From Methanothrix soehngenii GP6 (GTDB lineage: Archaea > Halobacteriota > Methanosarcinia > Methanotrichales > Methanotrichaceae): a stretch of 64,000 nucleotides of DNA. The stretch lies in NCBI RefSeq assembly GCF_000204415.1, contig NC_015416.1, positions 2,170,001 to 2,234,000 on the forward strand, written 5' to 3'. The notes beneath the pieces are model-generated. The model saw nothing but the letters and a program-made list of their open reading frames with translations. It ran no database searches and was not told where the DNA came from. A program made the position numbers and the translations under genes. Positions 2,708 through 59,045 of the stretch are shown piece after piece; the first letter of the stretch is position 1, and each line of letters opens with the position of its first letter.

Positions 2708-3868
2708 TTAAGCCGAGGCTATGGCCTCGACCGGATCCATTCGAGATGCCTTATAGGCAGGATACAGTCCCGCTGCCAGATCCACCATCATGGCAAAAGC
2801 TACGGCATAGGCGAAGATCTCGGGGCTTAAGAGGATGCTCATCCTGGAAGCGGCATAGACCTCAGCGGGGATCTCAATCGGAAATGCCTCGATCAGCTTG
2901 GCAGCTACATAAGCCAAAAGGCATCCCAGAGCGGCTGATGGAGGACCGAGGATCAGGCTCTCGGCCATAAAGATCTTGATTATAGATCCTCTGTTGGCAC
3001 CGATGGCCATGAGGATGCCAATTTCTCTGGTCCTGCGGGAGATGGTCATAATCATGGTGTTGACCACGCCAAATCCGGAGATGACGAATATGAGCAGGTA
3101 AAAGAGGTAAGTGAAAAACCTCTGTGTATCCAGGAGATTCAGGAGGTTCCGGCTCTTATCCTGCCAGCTCTGGGCCTTATAGAAACTGTCCCGGCTCAAC
3201 CCGGAAGCGATGGCTGGGGCCTCATAGAGATCTGATGTTTTAATCCCAATCTCAGAGACTACATCTCCTTCTCCCATCAGCCTCTGAGCAGTCTCCAGGG
3301 GAAGGTACACTAGCGACTCATCAGCTCCGGTTCCCGTCCGGATGTAGCCTGCTGGGGTTACCTTTAAAGACACTCCCTTGCGAACCAGGTAAAAACCATC
3401 CCCAGGCTTCAGCTTCAGATCTTCTGCCAGCTTGGCTCCAACGATGGCCGAATGCTTCTTGAAAGCCAGATCATTGAAATCGCCCCAGACCAGGTCGCTT
3501 TGCACACCCAGGAGAGGATCTTCAAGCAGCGGGTCGATGCCTATGATGGAGACTCCTTTCACCTGTTCTCTGTACTTGGCCGCAGCCATCCCCAAGAGCC
3601 TGGGCGAGACCGCCTCAACCCCGGAATAGCCCCAGATCACGCTTGAGAGCGTCTTGTAGAGGTGGATATAGTCTTCACCCTCCTTCGGCTCAACCGTCAG
3701 GTAGGGGCTGTTCTCCACTGTGCTGCTGATGATCTCCTCCCTGTAACTCTCCATGAGCCCCATCATAGCTGCTATAACCATCACAGCCAGGGCCACAGCG
3801 AGGACGGGGAAGAGCACCATCCTGGGGCTGGCTGTGATATGCCTCCAGGCAATGATAAGCTCAAACAT
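2708..3868 (-). CDS. ABC transporter permease, FtsX/MacB type
   Basis: A 386-residue permease with one N-terminal membrane helix (about 15-40), a large extracytoplasmic MacB-PCD-like domain (about 45-245), and three C-terminal helices of the FtsX domain (about 255-380). It contains the family's typical stretch TREIGILMAIGA. It starts two bases after the stop of the paralogous permease at 3871-5037. The two presumably form a heterodimer with the ATPase at 1969-2676. This class drives mechanical work on lipoproteins, lipids or surface proteins rather than classic channel transport (family knowledge). The substrate cannot be told. Confidence 0.9.
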   Translation of the reverse strand: MFELIIAWRHITASPRMVLFPVLAVALAVMVIAAMMGLMESYREEIISSTVENSPYLTVEPKEGEDYIHLYKTLSSVIWGYSGVEAVSPRLLGMAAAKYREQVKGVSIIGIDPLLEDPLLGVQSDLVWGDFNDLAFKKHSAIVGAKLAEDLKLKPGDGFYLVRKGVSLKVTPAGYIRTGTGADESLVYLPLETAQRLMGEGDVVSEIGIKTSDLYEAPAIASGLSRDSFYKAQSWQDKSRNLLNLLDTQRFFTYLFYLLIFVISGFGVVNTMIMTISRRTREIGILMAIGANRGSIIKIFMAESLILGPPSAALGCLLAYVAAKLIEAFPIEIPAEVYAASRMSILLSPEIFAYAVAFAMMVDLAAGLYPAYKASRMDPVEAIASA

Positions 3869-54519: not shown

Positions 54520-55077
54520 ATGAAAGCAATAGGAATTGTGGGAAGCCCAAGAAAGAACGGCAACACAGACATCCTGGTATCAAGGGTTCTGGAAGGAGCC
54601 AGGGAGGCGGGGCTTGATACCTCCAAGTACTTGCTCAATGAGATGAAGTACTCCGGCTGCCAGGCTTGCGAGTACTGCAAGTCTCATGATCACTGCCGCC
54701 TGGATGATGACGTCACAAAGCTCTTAGAGGAGATGAAAGAAGCGGATGCCGTGGTCTTCGGCTCGCCGATATACTTCTCCCTGTTCAGCGGACAGTTCAA
54801 GCTGATGGAGGACAGGATGTACTCATTGATCGATGCGGCATTCGTCCCCCGCCTCCGCCCAGGAAAGAAGGCCATCATTGTGACCAGCCAGGCAGATGCG
54901 GAAGTTGAGAACTATGCCAGAGCAGCGGATGATTTTGCCCTCGCCCTGAAGATGCTCGGATTTGAGGTGGCGGATATTATTCGTATGGTAGATGGCATCA
55001 CCCCGGATGCCGTCCTGGCTAAAGGGGAACTGCTGGATATGGCGCGGTCTGCGGGAGCTGCCCTCGGCGGTCGTTAG
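54520..55077 (+). CDS. Iron-sulfur flavoprotein-like FMN reductase
   Basis: 185 residues with a flavodoxin-like fold: AIGIVGSPRKNGNTDILVSR for FMN phosphate, and VVFGSPIYFSLFSGQFKLME. A cysteine cluster CQACEYCKSHDHC (about 48-60) sits where archaeal iron-sulfur flavoproteins bind a [4Fe-4S] cluster (CX2CX2CX4-7C). Such proteins reduce oxygen species or act as electron carriers in methanogens (family knowledge). Confidence 0.88.
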   Translation: MKAIGIVGSPRKNGNTDILVSRVLEGAREAGLDTSKYLLNEMKYSGCQACEYCKSHDHCRLDDDVTKLLEEMKEADAVVFGSPIYFSLFSGQFKLMEDRMYSLIDAAFVPRLRPGKKAIIVTSQADAEVENYARAADDFALALKMLGFEVADIIRMVDGITPDAVLAKGELLDMARSAGAALGGR

Positions 55078-55197
55078 AGTATTGCCACATCGAATTGAGA
55101 TATTGCGCAGATAACAGGAGGATTGGACACAAAAGAAAAAGCAGGTGAGGTGTGGCATTTGCACAGAGCTGCGGAGCATGAGGGAGCTTGTAGCCCG

Positions 55198-55992
55198 TTA
55201 GACCCTGCTTAAGGCCGAGACCCTCAGTCCAACCAGCCTGACCTTCTTTTTCTTTCTCAAGAATTGATCAACCAGTCGTTTGCCATTGTTCCGGAGAATA
55301 TCCAGGTCATTGGTGGAAAAAGAGAGAGACCTGGCGCGGGTAAATGTATCGAAGTGCTCGTATCTGACCTTGACGGTGATGGTCTTGAAGCGAAAGCCGC
55401 ACTCGATCAGCTCACCATGAATCTCTTCTGCCAGCCCGTCCATCATCTGCAAGATGGGGGCAGCATCTTTTATATCCCTCTCAAATGTCACCTCTCTGCC
55501 AATGGATTTGGTCTCATAGTTCACTACAACCTCGCTGGGGTCGATGCCCTGGGCACGCTCATAGAGCCTCTTTCCGAGGATTCCCAGCTGCCTTGCCAGG
55601 CGGTCGGGATCAGCTGCCGCCAGCTGGCCGATGGTCCTGATATCCAGATCAAGCAGTATCTCCTCCGTCCTCGGCCCCACTCCGGGTATCTTCCTGACTC
55701 CCAGAGGAGAGAGGAACTCCTTAGCTCCCTTTTCACTGATGACAGTCAATCCATAGGGCTTTCTGAAGTCCGAGCCGATCTTAGCCAGCATCTTGTTTGG
55801 GGCGACTCCGACCGAGCAGCTCAGATCCTCTCTATCCAGGACCTCCTGCATTATTGTCCTGGCCAGGTTGGCGGCCTGATCGAGATCCTCCACTCGACCG
55901 GAGAGGTCAAGGTAGGCCTCATAAGATGCGCTGCTAACAACGCCCCGCCCCCTGCCCTCTTTGGGATCAGCGCCAACGGTGACTACTCCCAC
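55198..55992 (-). pseudogene. DNA polymerase IV (DinB) remnant, catalytic parts lost
   Basis: The frame opens with VGADPKEGRGRGVVSSASYE and then jumps directly to EAYLDLSGRVEDLDQAANLA. In DinB proteins about 65 residues lie between SYEA and the SIDEAYLDLS motif, so an in-frame deletion seems to have occurred at the shared Glu-Ala. The SIDE carboxylates are gone. The N-terminal DMDSF Asp is also missing, because the 5' end abuts the TnpB element. The rest is normal: helix-hairpin-helix LGVRKIPGVGPRTEEILLDL and the little-finger domain. About 264 of an expected 350 residues remain. Confidence 0.85.
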
Positions 55993-56009
55993 CCCTTAAA
56001 AGGGGCAGG
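55988..56009 (-). repeat. Right-end hairpin of the TnpB element (omega-RNA 3' region)
   Basis: On the minus strand, CC-TG-CCCCTT TT AAGGGG-TGGG is a stem-loop that spans the tnpB stop codon and is followed by AGTAGTCACC. In IS200/IS605-type elements this right end is transcribed as the omega RNA, with the adjacent flank as guide. Here that flank is the dinB remnant. Confidence 0.55.
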
Positions 56010-57120
56010 CTTCTACGGTTTTGATTCCGACAGATTGTAGTCCCAATCTGAGTATATTGATTGCCGCATTCCAATCTCGATCCAAGGATAGCCCGCACTG
56101 AGGGCAGCTATGGACGCGATCAGAAAGCGTCTTTTCAACCAGAATGCCACACCTGGAACACATCTTAGACGTATTTCTTGGATCTACCAGTACTACCATC
56201 GAACCGGCACTTGCAGCCTTGTACGAGGTCAGAGTCACAAGCATATTCCAAGCCACGTCTGAGATGGATTTTGCTAGGCAATGGTTTTTGAGCATATTTT
56301 GAATACTAAGATCTTCAAAGGCAATCAAGCCGAACCTGTTAACCAGATATCGACTAACCTTATGGGCAAAATCGTATCGCTTGTTAGCTATCCTTTCATG
56401 GACCCGCTCAACCATCCGAAGAGCTTTTTTTCTCTCTGGAGTGCCTTTCGGTGCTTTTGAGAGCTTCCTTTGGACTCTGGCGAGTTCCGTTTCCTCTTCT
56501 CGGAAGAATCGAGGATTAGCTATCGTCTCACCATTGGAAAGAGTCGCAAAGCTTTCCAGACCAACATCTACACCAACGAGAGAACCGTCTTTCCAGGGAG
56601 GCCTAAGTTGATCTTCGATCTCCACAGAAAAGCAGGCAAACCATTTACCTGTCGCAGCTCTCCTTACGGTCAGCCGTTTGATCTTGCCTTCTATGGATCT
56701 ATGGAGCTTGATCTTGATATTACCAATCTTGGAAAGATAGAGCTTACCAGCATTGAGCTTGAACCCCTTCTGAGGATAGGTAAAAGAATCGTACCAACCT
56801 CTTCCCCGAAATCTTGGATATCCAGGATTCTCTCCGGCTTTGACTCTTCGGAAGAACGCCTTCAAGGCAAGATCCACCCTTTCCTGGGCATTCTGAAGGG
56901 TTTGGGAAAAGACATCGTTAAGTTCAGGCTTCTCTTCTTTCCAAGTTGGAAGAAGATTGTGCGTCTCGTACTTGGATACGGATTTGCCTTCTTTCTCCCA
57001 AGCATCTTTTCGGTATGCTAAGGTCTGATTGTATGTCCACCGGCATAGATCTAGGGTCCTCTCCATCTTCGTCCTTTGGGACTTTGTTGGGTAGATCCTA
57101 AATTTATATGCCTTGAGCAT
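55996..57120 (-). CDS. tnpB: TnpB RNA-guided nuclease (IS200/IS605, IS1341-like)
   Basis: 374 residues, apparently intact. The RuvC residues are D185 (GVDVGLES), E269 (LIAFEDLS) and the Asp of DRDWNAAIN (347-349). The zinc finger has Cys321, 324, 339 and 342 (CSRC and CPQC). The N-terminus KAYKFRIYPTKSQ is typical. There is no tnpA nearby, so it cannot move alone. TnpB proteins cut DNA matching the guide taken from the right flank and help element retention (established for other family members). Confidence 0.93.
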   Translation of the reverse strand: MLKAYKFRIYPTKSQRTKMERTLDLCRWTYNQTLAYRKDAWEKEGKSVSKYETHNLLPTWKEEKPELNDVFSQTLQNAQERVDLALKAFFRRVKAGENPGYPRFRGRGWYDSFTYPQKGFKLNAGKLYLSKIGNIKIKLHRSIEGKIKRLTVRRAATGKWFACFSVEIEDQLRPPWKDGSLVGVDVGLESFATLSNGETIANPRFFREEETELARVQRKLSKAPKGTPERKKALRMVERVHERIANKRYDFAHKVSRYLVNRFGLIAFEDLSIQNMLKNHCLAKSISDVAWNMLVTLTSYKAASAGSMVVLVDPRNTSKMCSRCGILVEKTLSDRVHSCPQCGLSLDRDWNAAINILRLGLQSVGIKTVEACPF

Positions 57121-57183
57121 AGATACTTTTTATGCGGTTGATTGTGTTTATCGTTTTCTGCACAACGGTGGGGCACGATTCAT

Positions 57184-57205
57184 CCCCTCCCCTGAAGGAG
57201 AGGGG
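57184..57205 (-). repeat. IS605-like hairpin upstream of tnpB
   Basis: On the minus strand CCCCTCTCC TTCA GGGGAGGGG is followed by ATGAATC. It is nearly identical to the solitary hairpin at 1938-1959. It may be part of the left end of this element or the right end of an earlier, lost one. Confidence 0.45.
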
Positions 57206-57274
57206 TCTTCTCTGCCCCTACACCCCGACGTTATAACCGGCCTTCCCTAAAATCTTTTCAATCCGGGTTTTGCA

Positions 57275-57856
57275 TCATTGCGAAGACTGCTCGGAGCCCT
57301 CCAGGACATCATCTGCCAGAATCGTCAGCAAGACCGTCAAATCCTCCATGGTTAGGATCTGGGCCAGTGCGCGATCAAAGAGCATCGTTGCATCTGCTGG
57401 CAGATCCTCATCGCTCCTCCAAAAAAGGATTCGGACAATGACGCCGGGAAAGGTCTCCACCTCCACTGCCACATCCGCCCCCTCCAACATCCTGCCGGCA
57501 AAATCATCCTGCAAGGTCCTGACCAATTCCTCCGGGCTCTGACTGAATCGCTCTGCAAGCGGCCTGATTGCCCGGCGGGAGAAATTGGAGCAGAAGAGTT
57601 TTCCTCCATAGGTCTCTTTGATGGATATCCATTCTCCTGCAGGTTCGTAACCATTTTTCGATCTGCCGATCAGATAATGGAGCAGGAGCACCGATACCGT
57701 CTCAATAGCCTGGCGGCGACTGGGCAGGAAGAGAACCTCCCTTTCCGCCTGCTTAATCTCATATCTGTCTTGGAACAGTGAAATGATATTGCTGGATGGA
57801 AGCCCGAGTCCTTTCAGCTCCTCCCAGGCCATGCCCAGTGCTATATCGTATCCCAT
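57275..57856 (-). CDS. DUF3786-like protein
   Basis: 193 residues from ATG 57856 (MGYDIALGMAWEELKGL); an ATG 30 bases upstream is weaker. It contains VLLLHYLIGRSKNGY, GEWISIKETYGGKLFCSNFS and VRILFWRSDEDLPADATMLF, as in DUF3786 proteins of anaerobes, whose function is unknown. The frame stays open for 18 codons after its TGA stop (CKTRIEKILGKAGYNVGV), suggesting a longer ancestral form. Confidence 0.75.
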   Translation of the reverse strand: MGYDIALGMAWEELKGLGLPSSNIISLFQDRYEIKQAEREVLFLPSRRQAIETVSVLLLHYLIGRSKNGYEPAGEWISIKETYGGKLFCSNFSRRAIRPLAERFSQSPEELVRTLQDDFAGRMLEGADVAVEVETFPGVIVRILFWRSDEDLPADATMLFDRALAQILTMEDLTVLLTILADDVLEGSEQSSQ

Positions 57857-57977
57857 TGATCTTCCCCTCTCTGCAAGACATCTCAAAGAAGATTACTGGC
57901 GGCCATCATCATCCTTTCGGCTGATCAGATGAAAAAACATAGAAAGGCTTATGCCGTAAAAAGGAGGAGAAGAGAGC

Positions 57978-59045
57978 ATGAATCTTGGGCGGAGGTTCGA
58001 CATAGGGGCGGGAATTTTCGTCTTTCTGATAATCCTTCTCACCCTTTACCTGACCTTAAACTTCCTGACAACCATCCTCTTGAGCGTGGTGCTCGTTTTT
58101 CTCCTCAAGCCCCTCTATGCCCTGTTCTTCAGGCTGACTAAAAAAAAGCAGATATCCTCATTTTTATCCATAATGCTGGTCTTCATCCTTATCCTCTCCC
58201 TGATTCTGGGGATCACCAGCGCCCTATTGGTGGAGCTGTCCTATCTGCAGTCATCAGGGGCCATATCAGATGTGGAGATTGATAAGACCATCAATGAGAT
58301 CGATGCCTGGTCCAAGAGCTTTATCCCCGCCTGGCTTTACAACTCCATAATCGAGATCGCTCTGCGTTATGCGCAGGAGATAAGCGACATTCCCATAGCG
58401 TTCGCCACCTGGGTATTTCCCATTCTGCAGCGTGAGCTCACCGCCTTTGGCTCCAACCTGCCCATTCTCTTTGCCCATCTGATCGTGGTGGTATTCTTCA
58501 CCTATTATCTGCTCATAGACGGCAAGGTTTTTATTGATCAGGCGGTGGATCTGGTCCCCCAGGAAAAGCAGGGTATTGTCAGGCGATTTCTGGATGAGCT
58601 TTACAGCATCTACCATACTCTCTTTACCGTATACTTCTCCACCTCCATGCTCAGCGGTGTGATGGCAGCGATTGGCTTCTCATTGCTAGGCATCCCCTAT
58701 CCATTTCTGATGGGGGTGGTGGTGGCGGTATTCACCCTCTTGCCCCTGCTGGGGCCGCCGTTCGTCTTCATTCCCATAGCAGTCTATTATCTGATCGTGG
58801 GAGACCTTTTCCGCTGCCTGATCCTCCTGGTATTTGGAACGGTGGTGCTGATGGTAATTCCTGAAAACGTTATCCGCCCACACCTGGCCATGATGAGCTC
58901 CCGGATACACCCCATACTCACCCTGCTCGCCTATACCGCACCCATATTTGTCATTGGAATCATCGGGGTGATAGTTGGCCCTACCCTCTACGGCTTCCTC
59001 CTCGCCGTCTACCGGTCGATCAATGCTGAAAGGAAAGGATTATAA
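57978..59045 (+). CDS. AI-2E-family (PerM-like) transporter
   Basis: 355 residues with about eight helices. The typical late motif GIPYPFLMGVVVAVFTLLPL (about 235-254) and LGPPFVFIPIAVYYLI are present. This family includes exporters of small molecules and Na+/H+ antiporters; the archaeal substrate is unknown. The region before it contains AAGGAGG-like sites and a 5'-overlapping frame that I do not trust. Confidence 0.87.
   Translation: MNLGRRFDIGAGIFVFLIILLTLYLTLNFLTTILLSVVLVFLLKPLYALFFRLTKKKQISSFLSIMLVFILILSLILGITSALLVELSYLQSSGAISDVEIDKTINEIDAWSKSFIPAWLYNSIIEIALRYAQEISDIPIAFATWVFPILQRELTAFGSNLPILFAHLIVVVFFTYYLLIDGKVFIDQAVDLVPQEKQGIVRRFLDELYSIYHTLFTVYFSTSMLSGVMAAIGFSLLGIPYPFLMGVVVAVFTLLPLLGPPFVFIPIAVYYLIVGDLFRCLILLVFGTVVLMVIPENVIRPHLAMMSSRIHPILTLLAYTAPIFVIGIIGVIVGPTLYGFLLAVYRSINAERKGL

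What the first reader, a model, noticed from the sequence alone, without database searches (positions are those of the whole stretch)
55198..57205. Intact TnpB element abutting a dinB gene that has lost every catalytic carboxylate
DinB lacks its N-terminus exactly where the TnpB element's right end lies. In addition it has an in-frame deletion that fuses SYEA to EAYLDLSG, removing the SIDE motif. No dinB 5' end is visible on the far side of tnpB. TnpB itself keeps all catalytic residues, and its guide would be read from the dinB flank. The events may be linked (element insertion, cleavage, deletion), or the remnant may be kept for another reason.
Basis: partly seen in the sequence, partly recalled or inferred. 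Interest (0 to 1): 0.6.

Follow-up and report, generated by a model that had tools for sequence, protein, structure and literature searches.

The report
DinB pseudogene interrupted by TnpB transposon

Summary
The feature is real but ordinary. A 1254-bp tnpB-only IS200/IS605-type element (window 55979-57232, minus strand) sits inside the only dinB of this genome (size fits Methanothrix soehngenii GP6). Five other copies in the genome show the same ends and the same target motif (TTAT or TAAT). Removing the element restores GRPVI|VGADP in frame, exactly the sequence of an intact relative. The in-frame 57-codon deletion (SYEA to EAYLDL) is confirmed against 10 intact relatives, between short direct repeats. 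Two of three catalytic carboxylates are gone; the letter of the third (Glu) survives. The C-terminal 238 codons evolved under purifying selection for most of their history, with no neutral phase beyond about 0.05 substitutions per site: death was recent, or that part is still constrained. dinB is patchy in the family (14 of 49 relatives). The TnpB cut position predicted from ISDra2 lies outside the deletion, so a causal link is unlikely. Best reading: a recently dead dinB with a mobile-element insertion.

The parts
57233..57272 (-). dinB 5' remnant: (Q)NPD-frameshift-LK, 9-nt insertion with TAG, then GRPV and the first two bases of I; first ~20 codons of dinB missing upstream
   Evidence: in-frame restoration of GRPVI|VGADP; best 16-nt match to relative G035 (14/16), unique in window. 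The 14 nt at 57233-57246 are secure, the rest (57247-57272) is likely.
57233..57236 (-). Target motif TTAT next to the element's left end (TTAT or TAAT at 6 copies)
55979..57232 (-). tnpB-only IS200/IS605-type element, 1254 bp, from AACGTCGGGG to GGGAGTAGTCAC
   Evidence: three other copies align over all 1254 bp without gaps at 98.2-99.0% identity, two more at 94% and 91%
57184..57205 (-). Left-end imperfect palindrome cccctcccctgaaggagagggg
   Evidence: Seen in sequence; conserved in copies
55996..57120 (-). Intact tnpB, 374 aa (RNA-guided endonuclease TnpB family)
55992..56005 (-). Right-end hairpin CCCCTTTTAAGGGG, overlapping the tnpB stop
55963..55978 (-). Predicted omega-RNA guide CGTTGGCGCTGATCCC, dinB-derived, single site in genome
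   Evidence: guide role inferred from ISDra2
55198..55978 (-). dinB 3' remnant: VGADP...SYEA|YLDL..., thumb and C-terminal domain, natural C-terminus; the open frame continues upstream to a GTG ending at 55992 inside the element end
55911..55923 (-). Deletion junction TATGAGGCCTACC (57 codons lost between two GA(A/G)GC repeats)
57275..57886 (-). Upstream neighbour, DUF3786 gene; its stop lies 42 nt from the insertion site, so the dinB start and its upstream region are lost

Best explanation
A recently inactivated, decaying dinB (Y-family DNA polymerase IV) gene carrying an insertion of a mobile tnpB-only IS200/IS605-type element. The element inserted 3' of a TTAT motif between the second and third base of codon 30. 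Independently, the gene lost its first ~20 codons and start region, gained a frameshifting net +8-nt change with a stop near the insertion site, and lost 57 in-frame codons by deletion between short direct repeats. No working polymerase can be made. Shown: insertion, restored frame, deletion, absence of another dinB, patchy dinB in relatives, intact tnpB. Inferred: that the element uses the flanking dinB sequence as its guide, that it was moved in trans by a TnpA of a related element, and that the lesions are unlinked.
For: Element ends fixed from five other copies with different flanks; 1.0-1.8% divergence from the three nearest copies, so a recent arrival. Gap-free in-frame join GRPVI|VGADP as in G035. 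57-codon deletion against 10 intact relatives, with repeats at both ends. The only Y-family locus in a 99.96% complete genome. Only 3 of 13 other genomes of the genus at 85% completeness or more have dinB and 14 of 49 relatives in the family: a dispensable, often lost gene. Related elements with adjacent tnpA in the same genome. The likelihood allows a neutral tip of up to about 0.05 substitutions per site (lnL falls 0.3 at 0.01, 2.0 at 0.05, 5.3 at 0.1); at the divergence of the nearest element copy (about 0.005 per lineage) 91% of neutral simulations keep the frame free of stops.
Against: The 238 C-terminal codons have no stop or frameshift and a low dN/dS on the branch (0.04 fitted freely; omega = 1 rejected by 77 log units), and all lesions lie in the first third of the gene, which is also what a retained C-terminal piece would look like. 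The far-side stub is short (14 secure nucleotides). No empty-site strain could be examined, so the order of events is unknown.
Confidence: 0.87

Rival explanations
1. The C-terminal remnant (thumb and little-finger domains) is kept as a small non-catalytic DNA- or clamp-binding protein, possibly translated from the GTG at 55992 inside the element's right end and transcribed with tnpB.
For: 264-codon open frame, natural C-terminus, none of 45 positions invariant in all others changed, low branch dN/dS, lesions confined to the first third.
Against: The signal is equally expected from a recently dead gene: a neutral stretch up to about 0.05 substitutions per site is allowed. No start signal with suitable spacing is visible before the GTG. 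No similar short dinB in relatives; the two short G026 fragments end at contig ends. 8 of 95 positions invariant in the other ingroup members are changed here, the most of any member, though on the longest branch.
Confidence: 0.08
2. The events are linked: TnpB, guided by the dinB flank, cut the dinB allele and the cut was repaired with the internal deletion.
For: Intact TnpB catalytic residues; guide-matching dinB sequence next to the element; the deletion starts within 64 nt of the junction.
Against: The predicted cut (15-21 bp from the motif, PMC8612924) is outside the deletion; the target there is intact; the deletion has short direct repeats at its ends, as slippage would give; the far-side lesions also do not span the cut.
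Confidence: 0.04
3. The truncation is an assembly or sequencing artefact.
For: Repeated elements can cause misassembly.
Against: Two-contig genome at 99.96% completeness; 1254-bp element with precise ends, the same target motif as other copies, and in-frame continuity of the two flanks.
Confidence: 0.01

Closest known systems
IS200/IS605-family elements with tnpB only (IS1341 type) and ISDra2 TnpB
   Same: TnpB with RuvC D/E/D and zinc motif, subterminal hairpins at both ends, target motif 5' of the left end, tnpB 3' end running into the right end
   Different: No tnpA in this copy; motif TTAT/TAAT here instead of the ISDra2 motif; omega RNA and cleavage not shown
Archaeal DinB / DNA polymerase IV (Dpo4, Dbh; Pfam IMS, IMS_HHH, IMS_C)
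   Same: Thumb and C-terminal domain over 238 codons, natural C-terminus
   Different: No start, no first catalytic Asp, fingers and the GIDE Asp deleted, interrupted by an element
dinB interrupted by an IscB gene in relative G055 (L167)
   Same: Another archaeal dinB split by a gene of a mobile RNA-guided nuclease
   Different: IscB instead of TnpB, a different insertion point, and that genome has a second, full dinB

Membership tests
IS200/IS605-type tnpB-only element | TnpB with RuvC catalytic residues and zinc motif | tested here: met
   D185, E269, D349 align to the ISDra2 active site; CxxC pairs present; NF040570 329.6 bits (cut-off 100)
IS200/IS605-type tnpB-only element | Precise ends, fixed flanking target motif, no duplication of the target | tested here: met
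   same ends in 6 copies, motif TWAT, in-frame join without duplication
IS200/IS605-type tnpB-only element | Subterminal hairpins | tested here: met
   Right-end hairpin CCCCTTTTAAGGGG in the predicted fold; left-end imperfect palindrome seen in sequence
IS200/IS605-type tnpB-only element | Mobilised by a TnpA (Y1) transposase | tested here: inconclusive
   No tnpA in this element; Y1 transposases next to related tnpB (about 64-65% identical) elsewhere in the genome
IS200/IS605-type tnpB-only element | Omega RNA with flank-derived guide, RNA-guided cutting | not testable with these tools
   Needs RNA data; Rfam gave no match at 55000-58000
Functional DinB / DNA polymerase IV | Two catalytic Asp (HVDLD motif and GIDE motif) | tested here: not met
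   Both absent; Pfam IMS matched only from position 98 of 148
Functional DinB / DNA polymerase IV | Continuous reading frame with a start | tested here: not met
   Interrupted by the element; far-side stub frameshifted, no N-terminus
Functional DinB / DNA polymerase IV | Thumb and IMS_C domains | tested here: met
   IMS_C 81.8 bits, HHH thumb matches

The most novel reading that the evidence does not exclude
The 3' part of dinB is kept as a non-catalytic DNA-binding protein whose start codon is supplied by the right end of a TnpB element, in the same frame as tnpB and just after its stop codon, so that a transposon end has become the 5' end of a host gene.
Probability: 0.06. Interest if true: 0.5.

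Novelty: new member of a known kind. Interest (0 to 1): 0.15.

Why it matters
It is one documented case of translesion-polymerase loss in an archaeal family where dinB is often missing, with the element boundary and original site readable to the base. If the remnant were expressed it would be more: a polymerase reduced to its DNA-binding half by a mobile element. As it stands it is ordinary gene decay.

Tried and rejected
Pairwise nucleotide local alignment of the far-side 61 nt with relatives' dinB starts was mostly not significant against dinucleotide shuffles, because the stub is short and has an indel; tests anchored at the junction were used instead. An element boundary with motif ATAAC was rejected: it adds a codon (PVITVGADP), while TTAT|AAC gives the conserved PVIVGADP. 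Synteny-based empty site: the flanking genes are not next to dinB in any relative examined. The genome-contig scan gave only distant bacterial relatives. Short standalone dinB C-termini in G026 are contig ends. Papers on this genome or its insertion sequences: nothing useful found.

Full report
Where it is. The window is part of a two-contig genome of 3,026,645 bases. The size (3,008,626 for contig 1) fits Methanothrix soehngenii GP6; that identity is from my own knowledge of the genome's size, not from a tool result.

The element. The tnpB ORF (55996-57120, minus) is 374 aa, matches the TnpB families and aligns over nearly its whole length with ISDra2 TnpB (8bf8, E 5.9e-63), with the three RuvC acidic residues (D185, E269, D349 here) and the zinc cysteines. 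The genome holds about twenty close relatives of this protein, whole or broken. Five of them are nearly the same element in different surroundings: three align over all 1254 bp without gaps at 99.0, 98.2 and 98.2%, two more at 94 and 91%. They share the left end AAC(G/A)TCGGGGTG and the right end GT(A/G)GTCAC, and the four bases to the left are TTAT (4 of 6 copies) or TAAT (2 of 6). The element is therefore 55979-57232. It has no tnpA; Y1 transposases sit next to more distant tnpB relatives elsewhere in the genome, so movement in trans is plausible but not shown.

The gene. The right flank, from base 55978 on, is dinB: VGADPKEGRGRGVVSSASYEA|YLDL... to the natural C-terminus. Compared with 10 intact relatives, exactly 57 codons are missing between SYEA and the EA of GIDEAYLD. 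In the relatives both ends carry GA(A/G)GC, so a deletion between short direct repeats explains it. The Asp of GIDE is gone, but the Glu letter survives in the fusion. It is the only Y-family locus of the genome.

The far side. With the element ends known, the left flank reads ...CCCGGATTGAAAAGATTTTAGGGAAGGCCGGTTAT and joins to CGTTGGCGCTGATCCC as GGA AGG CCG GTT AT|C GTT GGC GCT GAT CCC, that is GRPVI VGADP, identical to relative G035 and gap-free against the other intact relatives. The 16 nt before the junction match G035 at 14 positions; no other position of the window, either strand, does that well. A frameshift-tolerant score anchored at the junction is reached by 2 of 1500 random 75-mers. 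Further up, CCGGATTGAAA resembles CCGGAATTGAAG (PELK), but a net gain of 8 nt, with a TAG, separates it from GRPVI. The stop of the upstream DUF3786 gene lies 42 nt from the junction, so the dinB start and first ~20 codons are gone.

Is the remnant kept? A codon model on 236 aligned codons of 11 sequences gives omega 0.095 overall; on the branch to this genome it is 0.044 when fitted freely, and omega = 1 is worse by 77 log units. That shows a working gene for most of the branch. Adding a neutral stretch at the tip lowers the likelihood by 0.3 units at 0.01 substitutions per site, 2.0 at 0.05 and 5.3 at 0.1, so a recent death fits. The nearest element copy differs by 1.04%, about 0.005 per lineage, and at that age 91% of neutral simulations have no stop (66% if indels are added at one tenth of the substitution rate, an assumption). 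Nothing requires present function. All lesions lie in the first third of the gene, which leaves a small probability that the C-terminal part is kept.

Are the events linked? In ISDra2 the guide is the ~16 nt past the right end and the cut falls 15-21 bp from the motif (PMC8612924). Here those bases are intact dinB sequence; the 16-mer is found once in the genome. The deletion starts about 64 nt from the junction, beyond the cut, and the far-side lesions are on the other side of it. Repair of a TnpB cut by deletion should have removed the cut site. A causal link is therefore unlikely.

Context. dinB is patchy: 3 of 13 other genomes of the genus at 85% completeness or more and 14 of 49 relatives in the family have it. 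Among the best ~155 palm-domain matches listed from 192 class genomes none lacks the front half as this locus does (list truncated). In relative G055 another dinB copy is split by an IscB gene, and that genome keeps a second, full dinB. These are two cases at different positions and do not show a preference for dinB.

Conclusion. A recently dead dinB with a mobile tnpB element inserted and several independent small lesions.

Noticed in passing
L167 (G055:C1:2159500-2163500), dinB pieces 555-1280 and 2832-3125, insert 1509-2825: In a relative's complete genome a dinB copy is split by a full-length IscB gene (NF040563, 439.5 bits): a second case of a mobile RNA-guided nuclease gene inside dinB, at a different position. 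The same genome has another full dinB.
   Followed up: partly
L063 (G007:C123), reverse strand 890-985 and 2470-2565: A 96-nt duplicate of the dinB 5' end (93.75% identical) lies upstream of a full dinB with an MFS transporter gene between; the copy breaks off at KPVFV, close to the codon where the window's element inserted.
   Followed up: partly
window 55992-55998: The dinB remnant is in the same frame as tnpB and follows its stop codon directly (only that stop separates a TnpB-DinB fusion frame); chance 1 in 3.
   Followed up: no
G000: About twenty related tnpB copies and fragments in this genome, in at least two subfamilies with different left flanking sequence (TWAT; CTACA or CTGCA).
   Followed up: partly
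L170 (G017:C82:5500-8000): A decayed dinB C-terminal fragment with two stops in a relative that also has an intact dinB.
   Followed up: no
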